Below are positions 10,139 through 36,915 of a stretch of DNA of 38,559 nucleotides, piece after piece. Source of the DNA: Bacteroidales bacterium (GTDB lineage Bacteria; Bacteroidota; Bacteroidia; Bacteroidales; VadinHA17); the NCBI GenBank assembly GCA_012513795.1, contig JAAZBN010000107.1, forward strand, positions 1 through 38,559. Reading direction: 5' to 3'. The position numbers and the translations under genes were made by a program. The notes beneath the pieces were generated by a model. The model was not told the DNA's origin and did not search any database. It was given only the letters and a program-made list of their open reading frames with translations. Position 1 is the first letter of the stretch. Each line of letters starts with the position of its first letter.

Positions 10139-10561
10139 GATCCTTTTCGGTTTTCTGGTTTCTATCTGCAGTCCTGCTTCATTTGTCCGGGGATGTGTCC
10201 GGTGAATCATGTTTCCCGCAGGAAGTTCAATTTTCTCCATGAGGCTCAAAAATAGGTAAAAAGCACGAAAAAAGAGTGCCGGCATACCTGTCTGGGATTT
10301 AATGATCTAATTATTGCCGTCAGGCAATGTCAGAATATTACAATGGATTTCAGGGATCTGATCATGGTCTTCCCGGCGGCGGTGACTTTGTTTTCTTTGG
10401 GCCCGGTGCAGGTGAAGCCTGAGCCGGGAAGTCTGGGGCGGGGCCTGCCCTGGCGCTATTGCCCTTATTTGCAGGGTCTGTTGACACCCGGAGTCTGTAA
10501 AACATCTTTTCTCCCTTGAGGAAAATATTATTTTTAAGCGCTGAACCAATTCATGTTGACT

Positions 10562-13598: not shown

Positions 13599-16500
13599 AT
13601 GAAAGAATTCTTGACTATTCTGTTTTTGTTCCTTTTCGGCTCTGGTGTTCTCTCAGCCCAGGTTACGGTAAAGGGAACAATAGTGGATGATCAGAACATA
13701 CCCCTGCCGGGTGTATCTGTTCTGGTCAAACATACTTACAGGGGCACAATGTCTGATGCAGACGGATCTTACAGCATCACGGCCAATCCTGCTGACACCC
13801 TTGTGTTTTCGATGGTGGGAATGGTGACTCAGGAGATGGTAGTCGGAGCCCGGACTCAGATAGACGTTCTACTGGCTACTGAGACCACTGTAATGGATGA
13901 AGTGGTGGTGATAGGTTACGGTACTGTCCGGAAGAGTGACCTTACCGGGTCAGTTAGTTCTGTGAAGACCGATGACCTGCTCAAGGTCACCTCGCTGAAT
14001 GCCGAGCAGGGCTTGCAGGGGAAGGTTACCGGGGTGCAGGTAATAAGCACCAGCGGCGCTCCCGGGGCAGGGGCTGCAGTCAGGGTGCGGGGGGTAGGCA
14101 CATTCAATAACTCTTCGCCGATATTTGTGGTTGATGGTGTAATTCTTGATGACATCTCATTTCTAAACTCTGCCGACATTGCATCCATGGAGGTTCTGAA
14201 GGATGCCTCCGCGACGGCCATTTACGGATCCAGGGGAGCCAACGGAGTGATTATCATTACCACAAAGACAGGCTCAGTAGGGCAGGAGAAGGCAAGTTTC
14301 AATCTCAGCTCCGAGTTCGGCATACAGCATCTTGCCAGGAAGATTGACCTCCTGAGTGGGAGAGAGTTTGCCATTGTCTCAAATGAGATAATTCCGGGAT
14401 CATACAATAACGTTGACCTGGTGCCCAATACCGACTGGCAGGACCTGGTGTTCTCCACTGCCCCGATACATAATCACCAGATCTCCGTGACCGGTGCTAC
14501 TGATCTCACACAGTACTACGTAGGGATAGGGGCCTTCATCCAGGATGGTATAATTGACAAGTCTGACTACAGCCGTATCACTCTCAAGCTGAACAACACC
14601 TATAATCTCACGCCATTCCTGAAGCTGGGAAACAATCTGACCATAGCGCCCTACACGCAGCAGAACGCCCCGAACGTTACCTATGCCGTTTACCGTGCAC
14701 AACCGGTCCTTGTGCCTTTTTACGATAGCGGGGACTATGCTGTTGTATACAATGTTGGCAATCCTCTCGCCTCACTTGAATATTCAAATGATTTCCGGAA
14801 AGGTGTAAGGGGTGTTGGCAACATCTTTGCAGAAGCTTCAGTCCTGAAAGCTTTTACAATCAGGTCCAGCCTTGGTGTTGATGCATCATATAACAAATCA
14901 ACCAGCTTTACGCCTGCCTACACAGTCTATAATCCTGACGGCACGGCATCACAGCAGCAGAACGTGTTGAGTGACATTTATAAGGGCAGTTCTGACAATA
15001 TGAACTGGTTGTGGGAAAACACTGTCAGCTACAGGAATACATTTGCCGATATTCATTCAGTAGATCTTGTTGCGGGTTTTACCATGCAGGAATCTTCGTC
15101 GGAGTTTACCAGCATACCAGGTGAGAATGTTTTGCGTGATGGTCAGGACTTCTGGTACATCAGTCCCTCTTACATCTATGATCCGGCAAACAATGTTAAC
15201 ACAATCCAGTCGATTTCCAACGGAGTGGATGCAGGCCTTTACTACTCGATGATGTCATACCTGTTCAGGACCAATTACACTTTGAACAACAAGTACATAG
15301 TGACGGTAACCTTCCGTCGTGACGGCTCCTCGAAGTTTACAAAGGAGAACCGTTTTTCAAATTTCCCCTCGCTGGCAGTTGGATGGAACATCGGCAATGA
15401 AGATTTCATGAAACCGGTGGACTGGATTTCAAAGCTGAAGCTTCGTGCCAGTTGGGGGATCATCGGCAATGAGAAGATAAGTTATTTTGACCGTTATGCC
15501 CGGGTTCAGTCATCTATTATAGCAGTTCTTGGCAACCCCGATGCACCGGTTCCTGCAGCCACCTATGGCAAGAGCGGCAATCCTGACCTGAAATGGGAGA
15601 GCACAACTCAGACAGACATCGGGGCTGAGATAGGCCTTCTTGCCAACCGACTCACAGGTGAGTTTGATTTCTACAACAGGGTTACGAATGACATTCTTGT
15701 TGAGCTCTCCACTCCTGGTCATCTGGGCAACGGTCAGGGTCAGAGGATACGGTACAATGCAGCCTCAGTGCTGAACAGGGGATTTGAATTCAGCATCAAC
15801 TGGAGGGAGAAGGCCGGGGACATAACCTACTCTGCAGGTTTCCTGGGATCAACGATTCACAATGAGGTCCTTGAGATAGGCGGCAACAGCGGAGTTGATT
15901 CCACTCTAATCGGCGGGTATCTTGGTGACGGCAGGCCTGTTACGCTCAGCAGGGTAGGCTTGCCTATCGGTGCTTTCTACGGGTATAAGACTGACGGCAT
16001 ATTCCAGAGTGAAGAGGAGCTCACAGCCTACCCGCACTCATCTCAGGCCGGGGTTGGAGATCTGAGGTTTGTGGATGTGACTGGCGACGGTATCCTTGAC
16101 GGACGTGACCGCACCTTCATTGGATCACCTATTCCTAAATTCATCTTTGGGTTCAACGGTATGATAGAATACAAGGGGATCGACTTCGGCGTTGATTTCC
16201 AGGGACAGACAGGAAACAAGATCTTTAACGGGAAGGAGGTGGTTCGCCCTGACCCATACAACTTTGAGAAGCATGTCATTGACCGTTGGACAGGCCCTGG
16301 AACCAGCAACACAGAACCAAGGCCATCATTTGGAGGATACAACTACACACCGTCTGACAGGTTTATTCATGACGGCTCCTTCCTCAGGCTGAGAAGTGTT
16401 ACTCTTGGATACACTCTGCCGGCTTCTGTCTCACAGAAAGCACTCATACAGCAACTAAGGGTCTACCTTAAGGGAACAAACCTCTACACCCTGACGAAAT

Positions 16501-16613: not shown

Positions 16614-16618
16614 GAAAG

Positions 16619-18094
16619 ATGAAAACTAAGATAACAGTATCGCTTCTTCTTGCATCACTTTTATTTGCCACGGGGTGTGAAGATTTCCTGCAGAAGGATC
16701 CACAGGGTGAACTGACACAGGAAGCATTTCCGGAAACGGCAACGGATGCATTGCTTGCCACAAATGCAGTCTATGTCTCAGTGCGTAACTGGGCATATCA
16801 TTCAGGGGGTTATCCTATCATGGACATAATGTCGGATGATGCTCACAAGGGCAGTAATCCTAATGACCAGTTGCCCACAATAGGGCCGTACGAGACGTTT
16901 TCACACACCACCACACAGGACGGTCTTGACCGTTGGTGGAGCGCGCTTTATGAGGGTATCAAGCGAGCCAATGTAGTACTTGAAAAAGTCCCGGGAATAG
17001 ATATGGATGTTGATCTGCGTAACAGGTACCTGGCTGAGGCCAGTTTTCTCAGGGGGCTATATTACTTTGATCTCGTGAGGGCTTTCGGCGGGGTGCCGAA
17101 GATTACCACAACAACACCTGAGACAAAAGTTGCACGTTCAACTGATAATGAGATCTATGAACTGGTAATCTCTGACCTGGAATTTGCAGCACAGCATCTC
17201 CCGGAAAAGAGTTTCTATGGTCCGGAGGATGCCGGGCGCGCCACCAGGGGTGCTGCCAAGGCGCTTCTGGCAAGGGTTTATCTCTTCCTTGGTAATTTTG
17301 AGGAGGTTGAGAGCTATGCGCTTGAGGTTATCATCTCGGATGAGTATGATCTTGAGCCGGTCTTTGCCGATGCCAACGGTGTTTATGGTGAACACGGTGT
17401 GGAGTCGGTCTTCGAGATAGGCGCCATGGAGGTTGAAGGAGCAGGAGGCAACCAGTATGCCAATACCCAGGGGGTGAGAGGGTCACCAAACAGGGGCTGG
17501 GGATTCAACAGGCCCTCACTTGATCTCCGGAACTCATTTGAGCCGGGTGATCCGCGCCTGGATGCCACAATCATAGACCTTGGAGAGACGCTTGACGGCA
17601 TTCTTATCATTGGTGACGGTACCACTCCGGATGAGGTATTGGACAATGGTACCGTGGTTGAGGTTGAGTGCTATAACCAGAAAGTATGGTACCCAGGTGC
17701 CAGCACTATCACCCAGTGGGGGCACAACCGCAGGCTGATACGCTATGCCGATGTACTGCTGATGGCGGCAGAGGCACTGAACGAAAATGACAATCCTGAT
17801 GATGCACTCCTTTATCTCAACGAGGTCCGGGCACGTGCCAGGGAGGGGAACACTTCAATCCTTCCTGACATTACAGTAACTGATAAGAGTGAACTGAGGA
17901 ATATTATCCTTGAGGAGAGACGCCATGAGCTGGCTCTCGAAGGACACAGGTTCTGGGACCTTGTTCGAACCGGCAGGGCATCAACTGTGCTCGGCCCCAT
18001 GGGCTTTGAGACAGGCAAGCACGAGCTTTTCCCGATACCTCAGAACGAAATTGATATATCCCAGGGATCACTACAGCAGAATCCAAACTGGTAA
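16619..18094 (+). CDS. SusD/RagB-family nutrient-binding lipoprotein
   Basis: Lipobox LLFATGCEDFLQKDP; AEASFLRGLYYFDLVRAFGGVP; C-terminal EERRHELALEGHRFWDLVRTGRA...LFPIPQNEIDISQGSLQQNPNW. Confidence 0.97.
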   Translation: MKTKITVSLLLASLLFATGCEDFLQKDPQGELTQEAFPETATDALLATNAVYVSVRNWAYHSGGYPIMDIMSDDAHKGSNPNDQLPTIGPYETFSHTTTQDGLDRWWSALYEGIKRANVVLEKVPGIDMDVDLRNRYLAEASFLRGLYYFDLVRAFGGVPKITTTTPETKVARSTDNEIYELVISDLEFAAQHLPEKSFYGPEDAGRATRGAAKALLARVYLFLGNFEEVESYALEVIISDEYDLEPVFADANGVYGEHGVESVFEIGAMEVEGAGGNQYANTQGVRGSPNRGWGFNRPSLDLRNSFEPGDPRLDATIIDLGETLDGILIIGDGTTPDEVLDNGTVVEVECYNQKVWYPGASTITQWGHNRRLIRYADVLLMAAEALNENDNPDDALLYLNEVRARAREGNTSILPDITVTDKSELRNIILEERRHELALEGHRFWDLVRTGRASTVLGPMGFETGKHELFPIPQNEIDISQGSLQQNPNW

Positions 18095-18141
18095 ACAATG
18101 ATGATAATACTATTGAATGTCAAATTTTAAATCTTAAGTTT

Positions 18142-19365
18142 ATGAGAACAAAACATCTTTTTACAAATCTTTTTCTTCTTGCTGCAGCATTCTCGCTTAT
18201 GCTCACAAGCTGCAAGAAGGATCCGGATCCACTGGCCCTGGAGTCACTCATGGCCGGTACCATTGATCTGAACGGTGCCACTTCGCCTGCGAATGTACCT
18301 ATCAATCCGACCATCGTTGCAACCTTCAATGTTGATGTTGACCCTGCAACAGCCACAGCATCAACAATAACAATGGTCCAGGATTATGATGATGCTCCCA
18401 TTGCTTTGAACATCACGGCATCAGGCAACACCATCACAATTGCTCCGCAATCCAGCCTGGGCACGGGTGCCCTTTATCAGCTAAGCTTTGGTGCAGGCCT
18501 CAAGTCTGTTGATGCCCTTGCCATTACACCGCTTCAAAGGACATTCACCACCGAGGGTACTTTTGCCCCGGCGGGTGCCATTGCCCATTTTACGTTTGAA
18601 GACAATGCAAATGATATCATCGGACCCTGGGATCCGGCTGCTGGTGGCATAATTGACATTACTTACACTGCTTCAAGAAACACTGCTGCAGGCAAGGCTG
18701 CCACATTCAACGGATCTACCAGCCTTGTTGAAATCCCTAATGGTGATCTACTGATGAATACAAACAGTTTTACTGTATCCTTCTGGATGAAAACCAATTC
18801 AGAGGGCAAGACCAACAATCATTTCGTGATGGGTCTGGCCGGATGGAACGGATTCCAGTATGAGGTCTTCGGCGGTTATGACGGTTCTAAATTCGCAATA
18901 CAGTACGAGTATCCGGGTGGCACGGCATCAGAAGACATGTGGTTCCCTGCACTGGCTGATCTTGGCTGGAAAGGATGGACATATGCCAGGAGTCTGACTG
19001 CTGCTGAAATGATGGCATTGCTCAAGGATGCATGGATTAATATAGTATATACCTTCAATGGCCCGACCAAAGTTGGCACACTCTATTTCAACGGCCAGAA
19101 GATGAAATCATTCGACTTCAATCTTTGGGATGACACGGATAATAAGAGCAAAATTACGGGGCTTAAGTATGCCGGCCTGCCTGCAGGCAACCAGCTTGCA
19201 CTTGGATTCATCCAGAGTAGGACCAGGACAATAACTGATGATTGGGCTGATTATTCAAATCCTGAAAACCAGCACTTCAAGGGCCAGCTGGATGACATCC
19301 GTTTCTGGCATAAGGCAATCACCGAGAACGAGGTTCTCCTGATGTACAATTCGGAGAGGCCGTAA
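18142..19365 (+). CDS. Surface lipoprotein: Ig-like (Big_5-type) domain plus LamG/concanavalin-like domain; candidate surface glycan-binding protein
   Basis: Lipobox LMLTSCKKDPD; PINPTIVATFNVDVDPATA..IAPQSSLGTGALYQLSFGAGLKS; LamG-like AHFTFEDNANDIIG...GKAATFNGSTSLVEIPNGDLLMNTNSFTVSFWMKTNS; position right after SusCD. Confidence 0.7.
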   Translation: MRTKHLFTNLFLLAAAFSLMLTSCKKDPDPLALESLMAGTIDLNGATSPANVPINPTIVATFNVDVDPATATASTITMVQDYDDAPIALNITASGNTITIAPQSSLGTGALYQLSFGAGLKSVDALAITPLQRTFTTEGTFAPAGAIAHFTFEDNANDIIGPWDPAAGGIIDITYTASRNTAAGKAATFNGSTSLVEIPNGDLLMNTNSFTVSFWMKTNSEGKTNNHFVMGLAGWNGFQYEVFGGYDGSKFAIQYEYPGGTASEDMWFPALADLGWKGWTYARSLTAAEMMALLKDAWINIVYTFNGPTKVGTLYFNGQKMKSFDFNLWDDTDNKSKITGLKYAGLPAGNQLALGFIQSRTRTITDDWADYSNPENQHFKGQLDDIRFWHKAITENEVLLMYNSERP

Positions 19366-19389
19366 AATTTCAGTTTCAGTTGCTGAGAA

Positions 19390-19425
19390 AGAGGGTCCCG
19401 GCAAGAGCCCGGACCCTCTCTTTTT
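19390..19425 (+). terminator. Intrinsic terminator/hairpin inside the PUL, between the surface lipoprotein and the first GH144-type gene
   Basis: AGAGGGTCC-cggcaagagccc-GGACCCTCT (9-bp perfect stem) followed by cttttt. Confidence 0.8.
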
Positions 19426-19441
19426 ACAAGACAATTCTATT

Positions 19442-21406: not shown

Positions 21407-21412
21407 AAGCCT

Positions 21413-22792
21413 ATGAAAAAGATATACTCCATTATTGTTGCGGCAATTGTGCTTGCCTCATGTAACGTTCCTCAGCAGACAGGATTCGGCTGGCAGGGCA
21501 ATGTTAATTATCCGATGACAGCTGAAGATGAGGCAATGCTTGACTCCATTCAAAAAAAGACCTTTTTCTTTTTCATTGAAGAGCATCACCCGGAATGGGG
21601 TATAGTGAAGGACCGCTCCGCAGCCTGGGCGCCGGCAAGCATCGCCTCAACAGGATTCGGCATTCCTTCGTTTGCCGTGGGTGTGGAACGGGGCTGGATA
21701 ACCCGTGAGGAGGCAGCACAAATAACTCTGAATATGATGAATTTCTTCGTGAACTCTCTCCAGAGTGCCGATACGCTTGCTGCCGGGTACAAAGGATTTT
21801 TCTACCACTTTCTCAGGATGGACACCGGCCTCAGGGAATGGCGGTGCGAGCTCTCATCGGTGGATACCGGCCTTCTGATGATGGGAATACTGTTTGCGCG
21901 AAATTATTATGACCGTGATAATAAGACGGAAAAAGAGATCCGTTCGCAGGCATCACAGCTCCTTGGAAATATCGACTGGGATTTCATGCTGATGCCTGAC
22001 ACAGGTGACTACGCGCGGCAGATATCCATGGGATGGCACCCTGAGACAGGACTTCACCACATGGGATGGAGCGGCTACAACGAGGCGCTCTTCCTCTATA
22101 TCCTTGCTGCAGGCACCGGGCTGGAGAATGCAAAAGAGAGCTACAGGTCATGGCTGAGTTCATACAAGTGGCAGACACCCTATGATGGACTGTCGCATGT
22201 GGCTTTTCCTCCTCTTTTCGGACACCAGTTCTCACACTGTTTTATTGATTTCAGGGGACTGGCAGATGAGTACATGCGCGAAAAGGGGATAGACTATTTC
22301 GAAAACTCACGCAGGGCGACATATGTACAGCGGCAATATGCAATCGACAACCCACACGGCTGGACAGGGTATGATTCGCTCTGCTGGGGTATTACGGCAA
22401 GTGACGGGCCGGGAGAAAGTTACAATTTCGGTGACAGGGAGTTCCTGGGTTATGCCGGAAGAGGTACCAGCGGACCCGATTACAACTATTTCGATGACGG
22501 CACCATTGCTCCATACGGTCCACTCTCATCACTGCCCTTTGCGCCTGAGATAGTCATCCCGACAATCAGGTCAATCAATGAGAAGCTGGGAGACAGGATC
22601 TGGGGCAAGTACGGATATTATGATTCATTCAATCTGACAGCAGGATGGGTCAATGACGATTTCATTGGCATTGATCAGGGCCCCATGCTGATAATGATTG
22701 AGAACTTCAGGTCCGGGTTGGTATGGATGTACGTAATGAAAGATCCGGTGATACAGGAAGGCCTTGAAACCCTTGGATTCGGATACCTGTAG
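21413..22792 (+). CDS. GH144-type lipoprotein (second paralog, no Ig-like domains); putative endo-beta-1,2-glucanase
   Basis: Lipobox IVLASCN; DSIQKKTFFFFIEEHHPEWGIVKDRS..STGFGIPSFAVGVERGWITREEA..SSVDTGLLMMGILFARNYY..SLCWGITASDGPGESY..GIDQGPMLIMIENFRSGLVW. Confidence 0.8.
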   Translation: MKKIYSIIVAAIVLASCNVPQQTGFGWQGNVNYPMTAEDEAMLDSIQKKTFFFFIEEHHPEWGIVKDRSAAWAPASIASTGFGIPSFAVGVERGWITREEAAQITLNMMNFFVNSLQSADTLAAGYKGFFYHFLRMDTGLREWRCELSSVDTGLLMMGILFARNYYDRDNKTEKEIRSQASQLLGNIDWDFMLMPDTGDYARQISMGWHPETGLHHMGWSGYNEALFLYILAAGTGLENAKESYRSWLSSYKWQTPYDGLSHVAFPPLFGHQFSHCFIDFRGLADEYMREKGIDYFENSRRATYVQRQYAIDNPHGWTGYDSLCWGITASDGPGESYNFGDREFLGYAGRGTSGPDYNYFDDGTIAPYGPLSSLPFAPEIVIPTIRSINEKLGDRIWGKYGYYDSFNLTAGWVNDDFIGIDQGPMLIMIENFRSGLVWMYVMKDPVIQEGLETLGFGYL

Positions 22793-22840
22793 AATCTTCA
22801 GACCTGAATTGTTTTCAACAACTAACCGACAACCCGGGTC

Positions 22841-26032: not shown

Positions 26033-26054
26033 GAGCTTAAAACAGGTTAATCTG

Positions 26055-28145
26055 ATGGAAGACAGCAAAACCAGTCATGTAAAGTCGATTAAGGGCAATG
26101 ACCGCATAACATTCGGTCAGCTGGCTGCCTATTCTGCAGGGGGTATCATCCCCGTTGCACTCTTCAACATCGCCGGGCAACTGGTTGGATTGATGGGTAA
26201 TATAAGCCTGGGTCTCAGTGCATTCTGGCTGGGTCTGATTTTGATCATCCCCAGGCTCTGGGATGCTTTCTCTGACCCCATAGTTGGCCATCTGTCTGAC
26301 AATACGCGTACCAGGTTTGGCAGGCGCAGACCGTTCCTCCTCATTGGAGGTATAGCCGTTGCAGTCTTCTTTGTTGTCATGTGGTGGATACCCAAGGGTG
26401 AGATTGTTCATGCATGGTTCCCCAGTGACTCCGGATTCAAAAGCTTCCAGCTTTTCTACATACTGTTTGCGCTGCTGTTATTCTTTACAGCCACAACGGT
26501 CTTCGAGATACCTCACGGTGCACTTGGCATGGAGATGACCTCAGATCCGCACGAGCGCACACGTCTCTTCAGCGGCAAGAGTTTTATCGGTAACCTGTTT
26601 GCAATGAGCACCCCGTGGCTTTTCGCTCTTGCCAATATGGAGGTGTTCCGCGGCCCTGGCGGCAATGAAGCAGACGGCATGAGGTACGTTTCACTGATGG
26701 TGGCAGCAATCATTATACCGCTCTCCTTCTGGTGGACGGCCAAACTGCGTGAGCCGGGATTCGTCAGGGTCTCAAAACAGGAGAAGACCCATTTCTGGCA
26801 GGATATGAAGATTGTAGGCACCAATAAGAACTTCATTTACCTTGTTCTGACAATCTTCACCCTGGCAATGGGATTCAATTTCGTCAACCTGCTCGGCTCT
26901 TACATTCCCATATTTTATGTATTTGGTGGTGACAAGATTGCCGGTGCCAGGCTGCTTGGAATAAACGGAACCATATGGGCTATCACGGGTGTCCTTGCTG
27001 TCTTCCCCCTCAACTGGATCAGTCCGAAGCTTGGTAAGAGGAACACACTGATCATCTCCATGATTCTGATGACTTTGGCTCAGCTTTCCAAAATCGTATG
27101 CTATAACCCTGAACATCCATACCTGGTAATTATTCCCACCATAATGCTTTCTGCCGGTATGCTCTTTTTCTTTACCCTTGGTTCTTCAATGGTGGGGGAC
27201 ATATGCGATGAGGATGAGCTTCGAACCGGCCACCGTACGGAAGGCAGCTACTATTCAATATACTGGTGGTTCATAAAGCTTGGAACAGCGCTGGCCAGTT
27301 TTGTGGCAGGGATACTGATCACCCTCACTCTCTTTGACGAGACACAGGTCACAAAGGTTGACAGCCTCCAGGGAAGTGTGCGTGACATGCAGGCAAAAGT
27401 TGCATACTGGAAGGATTATCCGGGTGATGGCACTGCAACCACCGGGTGGCTGAAGAACGCTCAGGACCGGACGGCAGAGGCGCTGAAAGAATCCAGGGAT
27501 TATCTTGTCTTCCTCGAGAATGAAACTGTCAAGAAACCAGGGAGGAAGAATACTATTCCTCCGGACATTGAATCACAGAGAAAGAATGTGCTGATGAATG
27601 CAGCGGTTGTTACCAGGCAGAATATCGAGGCACTTGAAAAGCACCATGCAGCTCTTGCCTCTGCTGTGCCCGCTGTGCCCGCAGTAGTCGGTGACAGCCT
27701 TGTCAGGGCTACTGTGCCACTCATAATGCAATCTAAGCTAACAAAGGCAAGGATAAGCTCATTTGACCTGTTTGTTCACCTTCGCACCAGGTCAAATGAA
27801 CAAAAGAAAAGCCGTGACCACACTGAAAACCTTATCAGCCGAATTGCAGACATGAACAGCATAATCTATGCCCTTGAGCCCGGATCACCGCTTGATGTTC
27901 TTGACTCCGGACTGGCGGTAATCGGGGGAGACATTGAGCCGCTTAAGAAACAGTCGCCTTACACCCTCCTGATGATGCGGGTGGTTGAGATAGGATTACC
28001 GGTGCTTCTGTGCCTGCTGGCACTCTTCTTTGCCTTCCGGTATGCACTGACAGAGAAGAGGACACTGGAGATAAAAGAGCTGCTGCAACAGAAAAGGGAT
28101 AACGCCAGGATGGAGGGTATGCCTGACGGGCTGCAGGAGAATTAG
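26055..28145 (+). CDS. MFS sugar transporter of the glycoside-pentoside-hexuronide (GPH/MelB-like) type with an extended insertion before the last TM segment
   Basis: LGLILIIPRLWDAFSDPIVGHLSDNTRTRFGRRRPFLLIGGIAVAVFF signature of GPH symporters; ~200-aa hydrophilic/helical insert between LASFVAGILITLTLFDE and LLMMRVVEIGLPVLLCLLALFFAFRYAL. Confidence 0.85.
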   Translation: MEDSKTSHVKSIKGNDRITFGQLAAYSAGGIIPVALFNIAGQLVGLMGNISLGLSAFWLGLILIIPRLWDAFSDPIVGHLSDNTRTRFGRRRPFLLIGGIAVAVFFVVMWWIPKGEIVHAWFPSDSGFKSFQLFYILFALLLFFTATTVFEIPHGALGMEMTSDPHERTRLFSGKSFIGNLFAMSTPWLFALANMEVFRGPGGNEADGMRYVSLMVAAIIIPLSFWWTAKLREPGFVRVSKQEKTHFWQDMKIVGTNKNFIYLVLTIFTLAMGFNFVNLLGSYIPIFYVFGGDKIAGARLLGINGTIWAITGVLAVFPLNWISPKLGKRNTLIISMILMTLAQLSKIVCYNPEHPYLVIIPTIMLSAGMLFFFTLGSSMVGDICDEDELRTGHRTEGSYYSIYWWFIKLGTALASFVAGILITLTLFDETQVTKVDSLQGSVRDMQAKVAYWKDYPGDGTATTGWLKNAQDRTAEALKESRDYLVFLENETVKKPGRKNTIPPDIESQRKNVLMNAAVVTRQNIEALEKHHAALASAVPAVPAVVGDSLVRATVPLIMQSKLTKARISSFDLFVHLRTRSNEQKKSRDHTENLISRIADMNSIIYALEPGSPLDVLDSGLAVIGGDIEPLKKQSPYTLLMMRVVEIGLPVLLCLLALFFAFRYALTEKRTLEIKELLQQKRDNARMEGMPDGLQEN

Positions 28146-28164
28146 ACGAAAAACAGTGGTGTAT

Positions 28165-30597
28165 ATGAAATTCAGTATAAAGGATAACAACTTTTCTCTG
28201 GACGACAAAAAGGTCTTTCTTAATTCCGGGGAGATACACTATTTCCGGATAAGGCGCGAATTGTGGGACAAACACCTGGATGAAGCAGTGAGTGCCGGGC
28301 TGCACGCCGTAAGCACCTATGTTCCGTGGGCATGGCACGAAGAGAAAGAGGGTGTTTTTGATTTCGACGGCACCTCCTGCCCCGAAAAGGATCTGAACGG
28401 CTGGCTACGCAAATGCAAAGAGCATGGCCTTCATGCAATCGTCAAACCCGGTCCCTTCATTCTGGCGGAGTTCAGGGGTGCGGGGCTGCCCGACTGGTTC
28501 CTTGAAAGGTACGGTTATGATGTACGTATGCGCACACGCCAGGGAGTAAGGGTGATTAGTGACGGCGTCAGCCTCTTCAACAAAGATTACCTCTATAAGG
28601 TCAGGCTGTGGTATGACCAGATCATGCCCATTATCAGAAGCAATGAACTGCACCTGGGAGGCCCGGTGATAATGATGCAGGTATGCAATGAGATAGGCGT
28701 CTTTTCATGGCTGGCCAGGCAGGCCGACTACGGCAATGAGGTCAGGAACAGGTTCATTTCATGGGCTTCAGAAAAGTATGGGACTGTCAATGAGTTGAAC
28801 AATCAATGGGGAACGTCGTATAATGCCTTTGATGAGATTGAACTCCCCCCTGACGGCCGTGAGCCTTATGTCTCACCGGCTGACCGTGGCCGTGACAATG
28901 CATGGCACAGCTTCTGGAGACGCTATTATGCTGATTATCTTCGGTTACTGAGCTCAATTATAAGAGAGCACGGTGTCACTGTGCCCCTGTATCATAACCT
29001 TCCGGGATGGATCTACGGTAACGGCTACGAGTTCCCGGTGAATATTACAATGTATGAAGACCTCTTTCAGGGAAAGAGCGAGATCATCTTCGGCGTTGAC
29101 CATATACCTGAGTTTGTCTCTTACAGGAACCTGCATGACGACAGGATAATTAATGACATCACCATGGCTATGCAGGGGAGCGGACCGCTCTTCGCGGCTG
29201 AGTTCCAGAGCGGCTCGCGCGAGTATCATGTGGTGACAAACCCCCGCGAGACAGAGCTGTTCTATAAGGCAAGCATAGCCAACGGGCTGAAGGGATGGAA
29301 CTTTTACATGTTCTCCCAGGGACGTAACGTGAGCCGTCGGGGCTACTCTGGAGACACCTTCTACTGGTTCACTCCGCTTGACGCCGAAGGCAGGCGCGGC
29401 AGCGCCCGGGATGCAGTGAGAAAAATGAGCAGCATGGTGGCAGTATCAGGTGATATAATTGTCAATGCCTGTCGCAGGGCTGACGTATGCGTTCTCTTTT
29501 ACTCCCACTGGTATGCAACGGAGATTGAGAGGCCGGCGGGAGAGGCCTCGGGACTGACTTATGTGCCCTCGGCTGTCAGACGACCGGCATATTTTGACGG
29601 CCTGCTAAAGGCACTGCAGGTACTCAATGTTGATTATGACATGGCTGACCTCAATAGCGCCTCGCCTGAGTCACTGGCACAATACAGGCAGGTTTGGGTC
29701 TTTGCAACCGACGAGATGGATGCCCCTGCCCAGATGACCGTTGCCGGTTATATCACTGGCGGAGGCAATGCAGTTATCTATCCTTATCTTCCTGATCGCG
29801 AGACATCACAGCAGCCCTGTACCATACTCCGTGACATCATCGGGGTGACTCCGTCAGGAACTGAAGTGGTTGAATCGCCGCTGATAGACCTGTTTGACCT
29901 GCGTGATATTAAGTGCAGTAACCCGCAGGTCGTATTCAGCCCGGAATCGCTCTCCGGCGCTCAGGTCATTGCCCGTACCATCATCGGCACGCCGTGCGGC
30001 TTTGAAAAGTGGGTTGGGAAAGGAAAGGTTACATTTATCGGCACCTGGACAGGGTTTGATACCGAAGCACACAGGCTTTTCTACGAGAGGCTGCTTAAGA
30101 GATCAGCTGCACGGCTGCGGAATGCCTTATCAGATAACGGGTTCATAATCGTACGGCAGCGGTTCACTGATGATGGCAGGGGATTGCTCTTTGCGGCAAA
30201 CTACTACAATGAGGAGATGAAGGGCAGCGTCATCTATAAACATCCTGTAACTGGTGAGTCAGTCAGCCTGCCTTATAACGGTGGAGTGATAATGTGGCCG
30301 CCGCTGCGTGCAATGCTTAGCCCTCTCTGCCTGCAACTGACAGTGGGATTGATACTGCTCCATTCAACTTCTGATCTGCTCGGGCTCAATAAGGAGGGCG
30401 GTGAGATTTTCCTGACCCTCAGCGGCGACCGTGACCTTGCCGGGGAAACCGTCATCGAGGGGCCGGAAGCAAGCAGGATAAGCAATGCGGAGATCAATGG
30501 GGTGCCGGCTGAGATTACTGTGATTCAGGAACGCAGGGTGATCACCTACTGCCACGGACACGGGGAGGAGATGATCCTTAAGATTGTCCTTGGATAA
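28165..30597 (+). CDS. GH35-like glycoside hydrolase, cytoplasmic; putative beta-1,2-glucosidase/glucosyltransferase-like
   Basis: GH35-like start GEIHYFRIRRELWDKHLDEAVSAGLHAVSTYVPWAWHEEKEGVFDFDG; KPGPFILAEFRGAGLPDWFL; acid/base region QVCNEIGVFSWL and nucleophile region FAAEFQSGSREY; no signal peptide. Confidence 0.8.
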   Translation: MKFSIKDNNFSLDDKKVFLNSGEIHYFRIRRELWDKHLDEAVSAGLHAVSTYVPWAWHEEKEGVFDFDGTSCPEKDLNGWLRKCKEHGLHAIVKPGPFILAEFRGAGLPDWFLERYGYDVRMRTRQGVRVISDGVSLFNKDYLYKVRLWYDQIMPIIRSNELHLGGPVIMMQVCNEIGVFSWLARQADYGNEVRNRFISWASEKYGTVNELNNQWGTSYNAFDEIELPPDGREPYVSPADRGRDNAWHSFWRRYYADYLRLLSSIIREHGVTVPLYHNLPGWIYGNGYEFPVNITMYEDLFQGKSEIIFGVDHIPEFVSYRNLHDDRIINDITMAMQGSGPLFAAEFQSGSREYHVVTNPRETELFYKASIANGLKGWNFYMFSQGRNVSRRGYSGDTFYWFTPLDAEGRRGSARDAVRKMSSMVAVSGDIIVNACRRADVCVLFYSHWYATEIERPAGEASGLTYVPSAVRRPAYFDGLLKALQVLNVDYDMADLNSASPESLAQYRQVWVFATDEMDAPAQMTVAGYITGGGNAVIYPYLPDRETSQQPCTILRDIIGVTPSGTEVVESPLIDLFDLRDIKCSNPQVVFSPESLSGAQVIARTIIGTPCGFEKWVGKGKVTFIGTWTGFDTEAHRLFYERLLKRSAARLRNALSDNGFIIVRQRFTDDGRGLLFAANYYNEEMKGSVIYKHPVTGESVSLPYNGGVIMWPPLRAMLSPLCLQLTVGLILLHSTSDLLGLNKEGGEIFLTLSGDRDLAGETVIEGPEASRISNAEINGVPAEITVIQERRVITYCHGHGEEMILKIVLG

Positions 30598-30629
30598 TAA
30601 TATTTTAATAGACAAAACAGATTCTCGTC

Positions 30630-33600
30630 ATGAAAATCATTAACAGGGCAGGCTTGGCGGTTGAGTTTCTTGAGAATGGCGCTGTGTCATGCATACAGAC
30701 TGAGACCATCATGATCAGTCTGCGGCGGGCAACAGTTTATTCCGGTGCATATGCCGGGGTATTTATGAGAAAGCATGACGCTGCAATTGAAAACCATCCT
30801 CTTGCAGGGCCGGGAAGTGACAGCCTTTTCAGGGTGGAGAATGACAGGTACACATCTGCCGGCACCTGGGATGGTGTAGGATATATATGTACCCTTCGAC
30901 TTTCAGAAACTAGCCTGAGCTGGGAGTGGAGGATTGATCTGCAGAACAGCAGCGGCAGTGAAGTTACCCTTGACCTTGTGTGTCTGCAGGATGCCGGTTT
31001 GAAGACGGTTTCTCAGGGGCTTGTGAATGAATACTATGTAAGTCAGTACACGGAGAGGCGGATACTTGATGATGCAAAGGCAGGGAAGGTGATCTGCTGC
31101 CGGCAGAACATGAAGGAGTCGGGCGGCCATCCGTGGCTTATGATGGCATCCCTGGGCAGTGCAGCCTCGGCATCTGCTGACGGGATGCAGTTCTACGGAA
31201 GAAGTTACAGGGCTACCGGCATTCCTGAAGGATTACTGATGGAGAGCCTGGGAGGGGAGTATGCAGGCGAGTCATCTGTTATTGCACTGCAGGAGGAACC
31301 TTTTATGCTTCCGCCAGGTGGAAAAAGGACGGTAAGGTTTGTGTTGACCTTTATGCATGATCACCCCTCTGCCACCACGGATGCAGACCTTGCGAGGCTG
31401 CAGAGCCTGGCAGGGGAATTCATTCATAATCATGCCGCTATTGACGCGGATACACACGACGAGGAGCTTTTGAAACTGTTGAGTGACCCTCATGCTTTTA
31501 CAGCCAGGCTGGAAGGATTCAGGGAGAGTGAACCTAACCTGTTCAGCAAACCGGTCATGCTGCAGGCAGAGGATTTTCCGGAAAAGGAGCTTCAGTCTCA
31601 CTTCCCGGGCCCATGGAGGTATCCGGAATATCTGCAGGGAAGGCTGCTCTCATTCTTTTACGGGAAGAACCGTCATGTAATGCTGAGGGAGAAAGAGCTG
31701 CTGGCTGATCGTCCCCACGGGCATATCATGCATACCGCAACAAACCTGGTGCCGGAAGAAACAGTTATGTCAACCACTGCATTTGCCTTTGGTGTTTTTA
31801 ACTCACACCTGACGCAGGGCAACACCAATTTCAACACCCTTCTGTCAGTATGCAACAGTCAGTTCAACCTCAATCCGGTCTCCGGCCAGAGGATTTTCGT
31901 GGTGACCGGTGGAAGGCAGATGCTTCTCGGTGTGCCGTCTGCCTTTGAGATGGGGCTCAATCACTGCAGGTGGCTCTACCGGCTTGGCAGCGCTCTTTAC
32001 CAGGTACGCACCTGGACTTCCGGCAGGGTGTCTCAGGTCAACATGGATTTCCGGGTCCTGGAGGGTGAACCTGTGGCTGTGGTGGTGACGCATGATTTTG
32101 ATGAACTGAACGACTGGAGCATTAGGCCAGGTAACAATGCAGGAGAGTATATCGCAGTGCCTGCCAGCGGAAGCATGATAAGCCGCAGATTCCCGGATGC
32201 CAGGTTCATGATAACGGTCCAGTACTCTGGCAACAGGTACCATGCCGTAGGCGGCGGACTTACCGGGAAGGAAAGGGAAGTGCCTGAAAGTTCTCTTCTT
32301 GTGATTGAGACAGAGCCGCTCAGACGTTTTTGCATGAGCTTCACGGGTTGTGTTCCCGTTCACTGCACTCCGGTCCGCTTTGACGATGCCGACACAGAGT
32401 ATGCCTCTGATGCAGGCAGTGCCCTTGAGGAGTGGAAGGAGATGAGCCGCTCCCTCTCACTGGAGAGCAATCATGATGACATACAAGCCATATCGGAGAT
32501 CCTTCCATGGTATGGAATGAATGCAGTCACCCACTTCCTAACTCCATACGGCCTGGAGCAGTTCAGCGGTGCGGCATGGGGTACCCGTGACGTCTCACAG
32601 GGACCTGTTGAACTGCTGATAGCAATGGGCAAATACTCAGAAGCCCGCAAGGTGCTGAGTATCATTTTTTCCAGCCAGGAGCCTGACGGCGGCTGGCCGC
32701 AGTGGTGGATGTTTGACAGTTACAATGACATAAGAGCCGACAGCGCACACGGAGACATTATCTACTGGTGCCTGATAGCACTGACCGGTTATTTAAGGGC
32801 GACCGGAGATTTCGGGTTCCTTGACGATAAACTACCATATTTTCAGAAGAGCAGAAACTCGCAAAAGATTATATATCCACTAAGAGAGCACATTGACAGG
32901 CTGGTTAAAAAGGTAATCGGATCATTTATTCCGGGAACGTCGCTTGTCCGCTGCGGGGGAGGCGACTGGAATGATTCACTTCAGCCTGTGAGCAGGGATC
33001 TGGCAGACAGGCTTGTGTCATCTTGGACCGTAGAGATGAATTACCAGGCCTTCAGGCAGTATGCAGAGGTCTGTGCCATGGCCGGTGACGAAAGCCGGGC
33101 TGAGGAGATGAACCATTACAGTGAGTTAATCAGGTCTGATTTCAACAGGCACCTCATCCGCGAAGGTGTTGTGGCGGGCTACGGGCTTGCCGGTGATGAC
33201 GGCAGCATCACGCTGCTGCTTCATCCTTCAGACACACTGACAGGCATCAGTTACAGTCTGTTGCCGATGGAACGCGGAATTGTCAGTGGCCTCTTCTCTC
33301 CGGAGCAGGCAGCATACCATCTGGGTCTGATAGAGAAGCACCTCACAGGACCTGACGGTGCGAGGCTGATGGACCGTCCGCTGCGCTATACAGGCGGCAT
33401 AGAGAAGATGTTCAGGCGAGCGGAGAGCAGCACTTTCTTTGGCAGGGAGATAGGGCTGATGTATATCCATGAGCAAATACGGTATGCCGAGTCACTGGCG
33501 CGCACCGGCAGGGCCTTGGAGTTCCTTAAGGCGTTGCGGCAGGCTATTCCTGTCGGATACGGAATGATAGTCCCCTGCGCTGATATCAGGCAGGCAAACT

Positions 33601-34037
33601 GCTATTACAGCAGCTCCGATGCAATTTTTGAGTCCCGTTACCAGGCTGACAAGAATTATCTTGAGATAATTGAGGGCAGAATCACCCTTAGAGGCGGCTG
33701 GCGTGTCTATTCAAGCGGGCCGGGTATTTTTGCCGGTATCATCATGAACTGTCTGCTGGGCATAAGAAGGGAATGGGGCAGGATTGTGATTGACCCGGTG
33801 ATGCCGGCTTCACTTGACGGTCTGGAAGCTGAAATGGAAATCATGAACCGGTGCGTCACATTCGTCTACCATGTCAGGGAAGAATGTTGCGGTCCGAAAA
33901 GGATTATTGTACACGGAACCGACATTACCCTTTCGCCCGTTAAAAACCAGTACCGGGCAGACGGTGTGGCGGTGGATGAGGCTATCTTCGCGGATATGCC
34001 GCAAGACGGCGAAAACAGGATTGAGGTATATCTTTGA
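30630..34037 (+). CDS. GH94 glycoside phosphorylase, 1,2-beta-oligoglucan phosphorylase (SOGP)-like
   Basis: GH94 motif RCGGGDWNDSLQPV; EPDGGWPQWWMFDSYNDIRADSAHGDIIYWCLIALTGYLRATGD; MFRRAESSTFFGREIGLMYIHEQIRYAESLA; GGWRVYSSGPGIFAGIIMNCLLGIRR; no signal peptide, ~1135 aa consistent with long SOGP-type GH94. Confidence 0.8.
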   Translation: MKIINRAGLAVEFLENGAVSCIQTETIMISLRRATVYSGAYAGVFMRKHDAAIENHPLAGPGSDSLFRVENDRYTSAGTWDGVGYICTLRLSETSLSWEWRIDLQNSSGSEVTLDLVCLQDAGLKTVSQGLVNEYYVSQYTERRILDDAKAGKVICCRQNMKESGGHPWLMMASLGSAASASADGMQFYGRSYRATGIPEGLLMESLGGEYAGESSVIALQEEPFMLPPGGKRTVRFVLTFMHDHPSATTDADLARLQSLAGEFIHNHAAIDADTHDEELLKLLSDPHAFTARLEGFRESEPNLFSKPVMLQAEDFPEKELQSHFPGPWRYPEYLQGRLLSFFYGKNRHVMLREKELLADRPHGHIMHTATNLVPEETVMSTTAFAFGVFNSHLTQGNTNFNTLLSVCNSQFNLNPVSGQRIFVVTGGRQMLLGVPSAFEMGLNHCRWLYRLGSALYQVRTWTSGRVSQVNMDFRVLEGEPVAVVVTHDFDELNDWSIRPGNNAGEYIAVPASGSMISRRFPDARFMITVQYSGNRYHAVGGGLTGKEREVPESSLLVIETEPLRRFCMSFTGCVPVHCTPVRFDDADTEYASDAGSALEEWKEMSRSLSLESNHDDIQAISEILPWYGMNAVTHFLTPYGLEQFSGAAWGTRDVSQGPVELLIAMGKYSEARKVLSIIFSSQEPDGGWPQWWMFDSYNDIRADSAHGDIIYWCLIALTGYLRATGDFGFLDDKLPYFQKSRNSQKIIYPLREHIDRLVKKVIGSFIPGTSLVRCGGGDWNDSLQPVSRDLADRLVSSWTVEMNYQAFRQYAEVCAMAGDESRAEEMNHYSELIRSDFNRHLIREGVVAGYGLAGDDGSITLLLHPSDTLTGISYSLLPMERGIVSGLFSPEQAAYHLGLIEKHLTGPDGARLMDRPLRYTGGIEKMFRRAESSTFFGREIGLMYIHEQIRYAESLARTGRALEFLKALRQAIPVGYGMIVPCADIRQANCYYSSSDAIFESRYQADKNYLEIIEGRITLRGGWRVYSSGPGIFAGIIMNCLLGIRREWGRIVIDPVMPASLDGLEAEMEIMNRCVTFVYHVREECCGPKRIIVHGTDITLSPVKNQYRADGVAVDEAIFADMPQDGENRIEVYL

Positions 34038-34098
34038 GCTCCCAACTTTTTTCTATATTTACGTCTGGTAACAGGAAGTTACGTAATAACCGGACTTT

Positions 34099-36915
34099 AT
34101 GTCAGTAATTTCACCAGGGGGAACCCTCAGGCTGCTGTTCCTGGTCATTTGTTTAATATTTGTTTCACCGGCGGTTTCCGGCCAGGCGGGTGGAAACAGG
34201 AGTGATATACGCCGTTTTATCCCCGGAACAATACCTGTCAAGAGCCAGAACTGGGAGATAAGCAGGGATCCGGTAACCAATTACGTGTATTTTGCCAACT
34301 CTGCGGGGCTGGTAGAATATAATGGCATCACTGCAAGGACTTATCCCGTTCCATTCGGCCAGGGGGTGAGGTCGGTTTACATCAACAGTGACGGAGTAAT
34401 TTTTACAGGTTCATTTGAGGATTTCGGCTTCTGGAGGAGGGATCGCCCGGGGGAGCTCACCTATACGTCACTGGCGGTGGGGTCCGATGTTGTCGGGAAT
34501 GACGAGATATGGAACATCAGCGAGATAAACCACACTCTTTATTTCCAGTCATTCACATCTGTCTATGTTTATGATTACAATGGTATTAAGAGGATTGCTG
34601 CGCCTTCATCAATGCTTTTCTTCTTCAGGGTGGGTGACCGGTTTATTGCGCAGTCAATAGATGAGGGCCTCTACTGGTTTGACGGGGAGGCATTCAGCTT
34701 CATCGAGGGAAGCGGGATCTTCGCAGCTCACAAGATACATGCACTGCTTGACCTCGGTCCGCGTGAAAAATGGATATGCACCGCCAACAATGGTATATTT
34801 CTGTTTGACGGCAGTAAGTTCAGACCCCTGGAGAGTGAGATCTCGGGATACCTGAAGGAAGCTACGTGCAATGCAGGACTGGCGGTCAATGATTCGCTTC
34901 TTGTTTTCGGGACTATTCTCCGGGGGCTGGTACTGTGTGACCGGGATGGCAGGATACTGGAGACATATGATTACTCCAACGGACTGAACAACAATACCGT
35001 ACTGTCACTATATCTGGATGCCGGCAAGGGACTATGGGCCGGTCTCGACGACGGCGCCAATTACCTGGAGACATTATCACCTGTGGCCTATTACGAGAAC
35101 TCCGGTGGTGACCTGGGAACGATCTATACTGTCATCCGTGACCGCAATCATCTTTTCCTGGGGACCAACCACGGTCTTTTTGCAACGGGTATAGACAACA
35201 GTGACGGTTCATATCGTTTCACCGGCCTCCGTATCATACCGGGGACTCAGGGGCAGGTATGGAAGCTGTCGAAATATGACGGGCAGATACTCTGTGGCCA
35301 TAATGACGGTACATTTCTCGTTGACGGTCTTAAGGCCGTCAGGATCTCAGATGTCACCGGGGGCTGGTCCGTCAGGCCGTTCGGGGAGTACCTGATCCAG
35401 GGTACCTATACCGGTATCGTCTCCTTCAGGAAGGGCCACACCGGTAAATGGGAATTCAGTTCCAGGATTGACGGCTATGCCGAGCCTACCAGGTTCGTGG
35501 AGATTGATTACCTCGGGTATGTCTGGGCCCTTCATCCCCAGAAAGGAGTTTACCGGCTGGAGCTGAATGAGGAGGCCGATTCGGTCATCAGCTCTCTCTA
35601 TCTCGGTTCGGAGGGAGAGAACGCCCGGATGGTCTCAATGTCAGTGCTCAACAACCAGATGATATTCATCGCCCCTGACCATATCTATGGTTTTGACTAT
35701 GAGCATAAGGATTTTTACCCGGTTACATCGCTTGAACCAGGGCTGGGTGAGTTTGTCAGGGCAACGCAGATAATCCCGTTTCAAAAGGGAAGCTATTGGT
35801 TTGTCCTTGACAACAGGATCGCACTGTTCAATATAACCCGTGACCTGCAGGCAGAGAAGGTTATGGAGTTTGTGCATGAGTATGCTGATCTGCCCTGGCG
35901 TGAGCAGCAGGTTATGTCGCTCGATTCGGGTAAGCTACTCATCCCTACACGTCAGGCCTTCAGTATCTATGATCTCAACAGGTTGGTCAGCAGGGCAGAG
36001 ACTTCAGCGCTGACTGTCAGTCGTCTCGTTTTCAGCGGAGGCAACAAGACCACCACGCTGTCTCCGGGATCACCCGATTTTCATGCTGTCCCCAGCAGGG
36101 AGAACAATCTCACTGTATATATAGCCAACCCGTCAGGTTTTGACAGGGAAGTTCGGGAGTACCTATACCGGATAACAGAACTGGGTGACGAGTGGTACCG
36201 TACGGCAACCGACAACTTTTCTCTTTTGAATCTGCGGCACGGCGATTATCATCTGCAGGTGCGGGAGGTTGCGGGAAGCGGCGAGGCGAAGGCTGCCTTC
36301 ACCATCCGCAGTCCGTTCCTGCTCAGCGGATGGGCTCTGTTGCTTTATATCCTGGCTGCTGCAGGACTCACTGCGGCAGGGATAATGTTTTTCCGTTCGA
36401 AGCTTGAGAGCCACCGCCGTATGATTGAATACGAGGTTGGCAAGAACAGGCTGGAGAGCGAACTTGATTACAAGAGCTATGAGCTGATGCTTACAATGCG
36501 TTACCTGATAAGGAAAACGGATACCCTCAGAGAGCTGCGTGACAGGCTTGAGACGGCCAAGGAGAGCTCTGTAAAAATGCCCGCGCGGTTTATCAGAGAG
36601 ATGGAACAGATTATTGATCACGGGCTTGACACTCAGACTGAAGAATGGCGGAATGTGATGAAGAACCTCAAATTGTCACAGGAGGGGTTTTTCAGCAGGC
36701 TCAAGAAAAAATACCCGTCACTGACCCCGAATGATCTGAGACTCTGTTCCTATCTGCGGATGAATTTTACCACTAAGGAGATAGCCAACCTCTCAAACAT
36801 ATCTACACGGAGTGTTGAAATAGCACGGTACAGGCTGAGGACAAAGCTCAACCTCAGTCATGATGTGAACCTTACAGAATTCCTTATTCAGGAGGCAGAG
36901 GACGATGAGTCCTGA
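34099..36915 (+). CDS. Membrane-anchored regulator: periplasmic beta-propeller (Reg_prop-like), Y_Y_Y domain, one TM, coiled coil, LuxR-type HTH
   Basis: Signal peptide LLFLVICLIFVSPAVSGQ; propeller-like repeats; Y_Y_Y-like REYLYRITELGDEWYRTATDNFSLLNLRHGDYHLQVRE; TM GWALLLYILAAAGLTAAGIMFF; HTH LTPNDLRLCSYLRMNFTTKEIANLSNISTRSVEIARYRLRTKLNL. Confidence 0.85.
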   Translation: MSVISPGGTLRLLFLVICLIFVSPAVSGQAGGNRSDIRRFIPGTIPVKSQNWEISRDPVTNYVYFANSAGLVEYNGITARTYPVPFGQGVRSVYINSDGVIFTGSFEDFGFWRRDRPGELTYTSLAVGSDVVGNDEIWNISEINHTLYFQSFTSVYVYDYNGIKRIAAPSSMLFFFRVGDRFIAQSIDEGLYWFDGEAFSFIEGSGIFAAHKIHALLDLGPREKWICTANNGIFLFDGSKFRPLESEISGYLKEATCNAGLAVNDSLLVFGTILRGLVLCDRDGRILETYDYSNGLNNNTVLSLYLDAGKGLWAGLDDGANYLETLSPVAYYENSGGDLGTIYTVIRDRNHLFLGTNHGLFATGIDNSDGSYRFTGLRIIPGTQGQVWKLSKYDGQILCGHNDGTFLVDGLKAVRISDVTGGWSVRPFGEYLIQGTYTGIVSFRKGHTGKWEFSSRIDGYAEPTRFVEIDYLGYVWALHPQKGVYRLELNEEADSVISSLYLGSEGENARMVSMSVLNNQMIFIAPDHIYGFDYEHKDFYPVTSLEPGLGEFVRATQIIPFQKGSYWFVLDNRIALFNITRDLQAEKVMEFVHEYADLPWREQQVMSLDSGKLLIPTRQAFSIYDLNRLVSRAETSALTVSRLVFSGGNKTTTLSPGSPDFHAVPSRENNLTVYIANPSGFDREVREYLYRITELGDEWYRTATDNFSLLNLRHGDYHLQVREVAGSGEAKAAFTIRSPFLLSGWALLLYILAAAGLTAAGIMFFRSKLESHRRMIEYEVGKNRLESELDYKSYELMLTMRYLIRKTDTLRELRDRLETAKESSVKMPARFIREMEQIIDHGLDTQTEEWRNVMKNLKLSQEGFFSRLKKKYPSLTPNDLRLCSYLRMNFTTKEIANLSNISTRSVEIARYRLRTKLNLSHDVNLTEFLIQEAEDDES

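What the first reader, a model, noticed from the sequence alone, without database searches (positions are those of the whole stretch)
13599..36915. Complete candidate beta-1,2-glucan utilization locus with a phosphorolytic cytoplasmic branch
SusC, SusD, a surface lipoprotein, two GH144-type lipoproteins, an unassigned glycosidase-like protein, a GPH transporter, a GH35-like enzyme, a GH94 SOGP-like phosphorylase and a propeller/LuxR regulator lie co-directionally with short gaps. GH144 (endo-beta-1,2-glucanase) and SOGP-type GH94 are established beta-1,2-glucan/sophorooligosaccharide families. Inferred route: surface cleavage by lipoprotein GH144, SusCD import, periplasmic trimming, MFS import, then cytoplasmic phosphorolysis to Glc-1-P plus GH35 acting on sophorose or short oligomers. 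No GH3 beta-glucosidase is seen in the window, so GH35/GH94 appear to take that role.
Basis: partly seen in the sequence, partly recalled or inferred. Interest (0 to 1): 0.8.

Follow-up and report, generated by a model that had tools for sequence, protein, structure and literature searches.

The report
Bacterial locus eating beta-1,2-glucan
This is a complete ten-gene set that very probably lets an uncultured Bacteroidales-type bacterium capture, cut up and eat beta-1,2-glucan (a sugar polymer made by other bacteria); most of its enzymes are of known kinds, but it holds one large, widely conserved protein of an uncharacterised enzyme family that is almost never found away from beta-1,2-glucanase genes.

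Summary
In detail: ten co-directional genes at 13.6-36.9 kb, gaps 5-76 bp, order conserved across the genus and in a second family. The beta-1,2-glucan reading is supported. Both PF10091 lipoproteins are GH144 (56% identical to CpSGL, 48% to XcSGL) with the mapped catalytic residues kept. The GH94 has the SOGP domain set and 8/8 mapped LpSOGP residues. The 'GH35-like enzyme' needs correction: it belongs with the beta-1,2-glucosyltransferase IaSGT (E=1e-151; 16/16 active-site residues), so it should transfer glucose, not hydrolyse sophorose. 'No GH3' holds only for the window; the genome has seven elsewhere. Lipobox signals suggest GH144a on the surface and GH144b in the periplasm. The newest item is the unassigned 1,063-aa protein: secreted, CBM11-like + CBM32 + (alpha/alpha)6 barrel (AlphaFold pLDDT 90.7), no curated family. 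77 of 80 homologous loci carry GH144, in 74 directly upstream, in Bacteroidales and Ignavibacteria. Its profile aligns with GH15 so that the R-D, acid-Glu and base-Glu positions fall on residues invariant in 84/84 homologues. I read it as a probable new inverting glycosidase family of beta-1,2-glucan catabolism, linkage unknown. Closest published layout: the Ignavibacterium album IaSGT cluster. All functions are inferred from sequence.

The parts
13599..16613 (+). SusC/RagA TonB-dependent transporter (longest frame from 13548)
   Evidence: TIGR04056 E=4.5e-254
16619..18094 (+). SusD-like surface glycan-binding lipoprotein
   Evidence: PF07980 1.3e-35, PF14322 4.5e-29; lipobox cysteine followed by EDFLQ
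18142..19365 (+). Surface glycan-binding-protein-like lipoprotein (Big_5 + concanavalin-like LamG)
   Evidence: Pfam; lipobox LTSC-KKDPDP with export-type acidic residues
19442..21406 (+). GH144a: two Big_5 domains + GH144 catalytic domain; predicted surface endo-beta-1,2-glucanase lipoprotein
   Evidence: 4gl3 E=1.8e-164, CpSGL 5gzh 2e-146, 56% identity to CpSGL; D135/D139/E142/E211 -> D358/D362/E365/E434; acidic export signal
21413..22792 (+). GH144b: GH144 lipoprotein, predicted periplasm-facing
   Evidence: XcSGL 8xul E=1.1e-105, 48% identity; E239/F286/Y367 -> E224/F269/Y347; acidic export signal usually absent in orthologues
22841..26032 (+). Uncharacterised periplasmic protein: CBM11-like + CBM32 (F5/8C) + super-sandwich + (alpha/alpha)6 barrel; predicted inverting glycosidase of a family without a curated model
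26055..28145 (+). GPH/MFS_2 inner-membrane sugar transporter
   Evidence: PF13347 2.4e-68; TIGR00792 2.8e-50, below its cut-off
28156..30597 (+). GH35 of the IaSGT type, predicted cytoplasmic beta-1,2-glucosyltransferase (ATG at 28165 also possible as start)
   Evidence: 7vkw E=1.1e-151; 16/16 mapped active-site residues; no signal peptide seen
30630..34037 (+). [quoted passage not shown]
   Evidence: PF21958/PF21250/PF21270; LpSOGP 5h3z E=7.8e-162; 8/8 mapped residues including acid D760 -> D782
34099..36915 (+). Membrane regulator with C-terminal LuxR-type HTH (periplasmic sensor part inferred)
   Evidence: GerE E=1.6e-4, NF053779 C-terminal part 1.7e-6, both below cut-off; conserved at the operon end in the genus

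Best explanation
The locus is a SusCD-type polysaccharide utilization operon for beta-1,2-glucan (linear, cyclic or osmoregulated periplasmic glucan of other bacteria). Inferred route: (1) SusD and the LamG/Big_5 lipoprotein hold the polymer and surface GH144a cuts it internally; (2) SusC imports the fragments; (3) in the periplasm lipoprotein GH144b shortens them, while the secreted 1,063-aa protein, a probable inverting glycosidase of an undescribed family, removes a residue or linkage that GH144 cannot; (4) the GPH carrier imports beta-1,2-gluco-oligosaccharides (Sop_n); (5) in the cytoplasm SOGP phosphorolyses Sop_n (n of 3 or more) to glucose-1-phosphate, ending at sophorose, and the GH35 transferase rearranges sophorose (2 Sop2 -> Sop3 + Glc), regenerating an SOGP substrate. 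Net: sophorose + phosphate -> glucose + glucose-1-phosphate without a beta-glucosidase. Family membership, catalytic residues and genetic linkage were tested here; locations, directions and the SGT/SOGP cycle are inferred.
For: GH144, SOGP and SGT memberships with mapped active sites. Published relatives act on beta-1,2-glucan or its oligosaccharides (PMC12102758; PMC5309861; PMC8861115). IaSGT disproportionates Sop2-5 and releases glucose from Sop2. SOGP acts on DP 3 or more. Operon conserved across the genus and in another family; of 80 named loci 77 carry GH144, 64 GH35, 67 GPH, 49 SOGP, with short contigs limiting the counts. GH144a orthologues carry acidic lipoprotein export signals (27/31), GH144b mostly not (14/41).
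Against: No growth, expression or enzyme data. IaSGT has a poor Km for Sop2 (120 mM) and prefers alkyl/aryl glucosides as acceptors, so the proposed SGT/SOGP cycle may not be its physiological role. The genome has seven GH3 genes that could hydrolyse sophorose. A GH144-containing SusCD locus in Bacteroides xylanisolvens includes a GH35 that acts on beta-1,2-galacto-oligosaccharides, so GH144 alone does not fix the substrate (PMC11739564).
Confidence: 0.87

Rival explanations
1. The GH35 simply hydrolyses sophorose (or another beta-glucoside or beta-galactoside) in the cytoplasm.
For: GH35 is mostly a hydrolase family; a terminal glucosidase would complete the pathway simply.
Against: All 16 mapped IaSGT residues are kept, including acceptor-site R349, L100 and Y397, which vary among homologues; IaSGT shows no hydrolysis of Sop3, lactose or pNP-Gal. 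Beta-galactosidase-type GH35 chains match far more weakly.
Confidence: 0.15
2. The substrate is not beta-1,2-glucan polymer but a related glycan, such as beta-1,2-galactan or plant sophorosides.
For: A GH144-containing PUL in B. xylanisolvens includes a GH35 beta-1,2-galactosidase; plant sophorosides exist.
Against: Two endo-glucanases plus SusCD imply a polymer; the SOGP and SGT residues that bind glucose are all kept; the GH35 falls with IaSGT.
Confidence: 0.08
3. The 1,063-aa protein is not an enzyme but a periplasmic binding or scaffolding protein with a degenerate barrel.
For: No curated family; two carbohydrate-binding-like modules; structural matches to barrel enzymes are only TM about 0.5.
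Against: A dense set of invariant acidic and aromatic residues in the barrel, including R641-D642, E761 and E924 in 84/84 homologues, at the GH15 substrate-binding and catalytic positions.
Confidence: 0.12
4. Sophorose is mainly split by a GH3 beta-glucosidase encoded elsewhere; the SGT/SOGP cycle is minor.
For: Seven GH3 genes in the genome; beta-1,2-active GH3 enzymes are known from Listeria and B. thetaiotaomicron.
Against: No GH3 lies in the locus; the GPH carrier and two cytoplasmic beta-1,2 enzymes imply that oligosaccharides reach the cytoplasm intact.
Confidence: 0.35

Closest known systems
Ignavibacterium album IaSGT gene cluster (IALB_1177-1187; PMC8861115)
   Same: Two GH144, a GH94, a GH35 beta-1,2-glucosyltransferase and a transporter; TonB-dependent import presumed there too. 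Ignavibacterial relatives found here also carry the unknown protein next to GH144.
   Different: Here SusC/SusD with a surface-binding lipoprotein and a GPH carrier instead of an ABC transporter; GH94 is SOGP-type with SOGP N-domains, whereas IALB_1177 is described as resembling the GH94 domain of cyclic glucan synthase; a LuxR-type regulator ends the operon.
GH144 beta-1,2-glucanases CpSGL (5gzh) and XcSGL (8xul)
   Same: 56% and 48% identity to GH144a and GH144b; mapped catalytic residues kept.
   Different: GH144a carries two N-terminal Big_5 domains.
LpSOGP (5h3z), GH94
   Same: Domain set and 8/8 mapped active-site residues.
   Different: Distant in sequence; specificity not measured.
GH15 glucoamylase-like enzymes and other six-hairpin glycosidases (GH94, GH116, GH133/GDE_C, GH78), as relatives of the 1,063-aa protein
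   Same: Fold (best Foldseek hits GH94, GH15, GH116); GH15 profile match, probability 93%, with R-D, acid Glu and base Glu aligned.
   Different: 10-14% identity, below every curated glycosidase cut-off in the window protein; not a member of any of them on this evidence.

Membership tests
GH144 | Whole catalytic-domain homology to CpSGL/XcSGL well above the <20% seen between SGL-clan families | tested here: met
   56% and 48% identity over about 398 and 377 aligned residues (clan identities from PMC12102758)
GH144 | General acid Glu (CpSGL E211 / XcSGL E239), acidic residue at CpSGL E142, clan F286 and Y367 | tested here: met
   GH144a E434, E365; GH144b E224, D151, F269, Y347
GH144 | Endo-hydrolysis of beta-1,2-glucan | not testable with these tools
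   Needs enzyme assay
GH94 SOGP (EC 2.4.1.333) | Ndom1/Ndom2 + (alpha/alpha)6 + C-terminal domain, closest to SOGP | tested here: met
   PF21958, PF21250, PF17167, PF21270; 5h3z 7.8e-162 versus 2e-9 for the next GH94 chain
GH94 SOGP (EC 2.4.1.333) | G1P/phosphate-site residues R630, D631, W758, D760, E917, Y922, H924 and +1-site R907 | tested here: met
   R653, D654, W780, D782, E940, Y945, H947, R930
[quoted passage not shown] acceptor site including R349 | tested here: met
   All conserved, 16/16
GH35 beta-1,2-glucosyltransferase (IaSGT type, EC 2.4.1.391) | Transfer without hydrolysis | not testable with these tools
   Needs assay on Sop2-Sop5
Polysaccharide utilization locus (SusCD type) | Adjacent susC/susD with co-directional CAZymes and a regulator | tested here: met
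GH15 (for the 22841-26032 protein) | Match above the curated PF00723 cut-off | tested here: not met
   No PF00723 hit for the window protein; homologues reach only 14-16 bits against a cut-off of 22
GH15 (for the 22841-26032 protein) | R-D substrate pair, acid Glu and base Glu | tested here: inconclusive
   Aligned positions are invariant in 84/84, but this rests on a profile alignment at 93% probability and the model's active site was not superposed

The most novel reading that the evidence does not exclude
The 22841-26032 protein founds a new glycoside hydrolase family of the six-hairpin group: a secreted, inverting, gluco-specific enzyme dedicated to beta-1,2-glucan-derived fragments, possibly cleaving the non-1,2 linkages (the alpha-1,6 closing bond of Xanthomonas/Ralstonia-type cyclic glucans, or beta-1,6 side chains) that GH144 and SOGP cannot handle.
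Probability: 0.5. Interest if true: 0.7.

Novelty: new variant of a known kind. Interest (0 to 1): 0.55.

Why it matters
Beta-1,2-glucans are virulence, symbiosis and osmoregulation factors of many Gram-negative bacteria, and few organisms are known to eat them. If active, that family would be a missing step of the pathway and a probe for the real structure of environmental beta-1,2-glucans.

Tried and rejected
GH144b as one of the newly created families GH192-194: rejected, because its best match XCC2207 (8xul) is the enzyme that PMC12102758 treats as GH144. GH35 as beta-galactosidase: rejected on clade and residues. Assigning the 1,063-aa protein to GH78, GH94, GH133/GDE_C, GH116 or GH15: Pfam hits below cut-off in the window protein; profile comparison gave GH94 20%, GH78 0.6%, GH15 93%, GH116/DUF608 95% over only 175 columns, and 99.4% to a mixed, uncharacterised set of six-hairpin proteins (A8, which includes one distant relative from G057), so the nearest kin is other unassigned six-hairpin proteins. 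A first AlphaFold model from 15 close sequences was poor (pLDDT 60.6) and was replaced by an 84-sequence one. Literature searches found no paper describing this SusCD + SGT + SOGP layout or this protein; only open-licence papers are held.

Full report
What is there. Ten co-directional genes fill 13599-36915 with gaps of 5-76 bp. They encode SusC, SusD, a Big_5/LamG lipoprotein, two PF10091 (GH144) lipoproteins, a 1,063-aa secreted protein, a GPH/MFS_2 carrier, a GH35, a GH94 with SOGP domains and a regulator with a weak C-terminal LuxR-type HTH. The window is one contig of a 3.13-Mb MAG in 317 contigs, 88% complete. Named relatives are mostly Bacteroidales MAGs.

GH144. GH144a (19442) is closest to 4gl3 (1.8e-164) and CpSGL (2e-146), with 56% identity to CpSGL. 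GH144b (21413) is closest to XCC2207/XcSGL (1.1e-105), with 48% identity. XcSGL was assayed as a beta-1,2-glucan-specific GH144, and families of the clan mostly share under 20% identity (PMC12102758), so both proteins are GH144. CpSGL D135, D139, E142 and E211 map to D358, D362, E365 and E434; XcSGL E239, F286 and Y367 map to E224, F269 and Y347. Orthologues of GH144a carry acidic residues just after the lipobox cysteine in 27 of 31 cases (mean 1.6), GH144b in 14 of 41 (mean 0.5). By the known Bacteroidota lipoprotein export rule (established knowledge) this puts GH144a on the surface and GH144b facing the periplasm; this is inference.

GH94. The domains SOGP_N, SOGP_2nd and SOGP_4th are all present. 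LpSOGP matches at 7.8e-162 against 2e-9 for the next GH94 chain. The residues that bind glucose-1-phosphate and phosphate in LpSOGP (PMC5309861) are conserved 8 of 8, including the catalytic acid D760 -> D782 (the printed chain runs one residue ahead of the paper's numbering).

GH35. The best match is IaSGT, a beta-1,2-glucosyltransferase from Ignavibacterium album (1.1e-151); archaeal glucosaminidase-type chains follow at 1e-60 and beta-galactosidases at 1e-24. All 16 active-site residues checked are identical, including R349, L100 and Y397, which PMC8861115 reports as variable among homologues. IaSGT disproportionates Sop2-5, releases glucose from Sop2 and does not hydrolyse.

How the cytoplasmic end could work. 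SOGP needs three or more glucose units, so it leaves sophorose. An SGT reaction 2 Sop2 -> Sop3 + Glc followed by SOGP (Sop3 + Pi -> Sop2 + Glc-1-P) gives net sophorose + Pi -> Glc + Glc-1-P. This is inference; IaSGT's Km for Sop2 is 120 mM, and seven GH3 genes lie elsewhere in the genome.

The unassigned protein (22841-26032). It has a signal peptide and no lipobox in 73 of 77 relatives, an F5/8C (CBM32) domain at 193-306 and an N-terminal part that matches CBM11 at profile level (1v0a, 6.8e-6). The catalytic-looking part has no Pfam or NCBIfam assignment above cut-off. AlphaFold with 84 relatives gives pLDDT 90.7 and pTM 0.87. Foldseek finds (alpha/alpha)6-barrel enzymes: GH94, GH15 (dextran dextrinase, glucodextranase), GH116, GH95 and others, target TM-scores of about 0.4-0.58, 10-14% identity. 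Profile comparison with GH15 (probability 93%) aligns GH15 R273-D274, E399 (in GIWE) and E561 with R641-D642, E761 and E924, all invariant in 84 of 84 sequences; that these GH15 residues are its sugar-binding pair, acid and base is established knowledge. Controls: GH94 20%, GH78 0.6%; a GH116/DUF608 set gave 95% over a short stretch, and a mixed uncharacterised six-hairpin set 99.4%. So it is a six-hairpin glycosidase-like family with no characterised close kin found here.

Its genetic association. In the genus the gene always lies between GH144b and GPH. In a phylum sample of 396 genomes, PF10091 occurs in 137 and the unknown in 19 besides G000; all 19 have PF10091 (about 6.6 expected if independent), and in each a GH144 gene lies on the fetched stretch of at most 20 kb around it. 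Of 80 named loci, 77 carry GH144 and in 74 a GH144 gene is directly upstream on the same strand, median gap 79 bp; the three without GH144 begin inside the gene at a contig end, so nothing upstream could be seen. Ignavibacterial loci replace GPH by an ABC binding protein and SOGP by other GH94 types, and often add GH2, yet keep the GH144 - unknown pair. This is good evidence for a role in beta-1,2-glucan use, though the genomes are not phylogenetically independent.

Modularity. In some relatives (L095, L096, L103, L118) the outer-membrane half (SusC, SusD, binding lipoprotein, GH144a) is replaced by a distant set (SusC/D 26-38% identical) while the inner half stays 52-86% identical. This suggests that capture modules are exchanged for differently decorated glucans; inference.

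Verdict. The finding is right in substance. The locus is a new variant of a known kind: the I. album-type beta-1,2-glucan pathway recast as a SusCD operon. Its real interest lies in the uncharacterised protein family tied to it.

Noticed in passing
L095, L096, L103, L104, L118 (upstream half of the locus): The SusC/SusD/surface lipoprotein/GH144a half is swapped for a distant set while the GH144b-unknown-GPH-GH35-SOGP half stays closely related, i.e. modular exchange of the capture half.
   Followed up: partly
G009 (L031 and L032): One genome carries two copies of the core locus on different contigs, with different GH144a parts.
   Followed up: no
26055-28145: The GPH carrier has a roughly 200-residue insertion near its C-terminal end (about residues 430-640), which makes it much longer than the 427-position MFS_2 model; its function is unknown.
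   Followed up: no
10553-13360: An S9 prolyl-oligopeptidase-like gene lies just upstream and is conserved there in the genus but was not seen in more distant loci; probably unrelated to glucan use.
   Followed up: partly
5499-7924 (- strand): A squalene/phytoene synthase-like gene overlaps an FAD amine-oxidoreductase (phytoene desaturase-like) gene: a small carotenoid-type gene pair.
   Followed up: no
G000:C12:3404-4687: A second GH94 (819-aa frame, E=1.5e-160), of ordinary cellobiose-phosphorylase size, is encoded elsewhere in the genome.
   Followed up: no
L049:7727-9853 (G057): A distant (23%) relative of the unknown protein without the binding modules lies in a stretch without GH144, so the wider family may have other roles.
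   Followed up: partly
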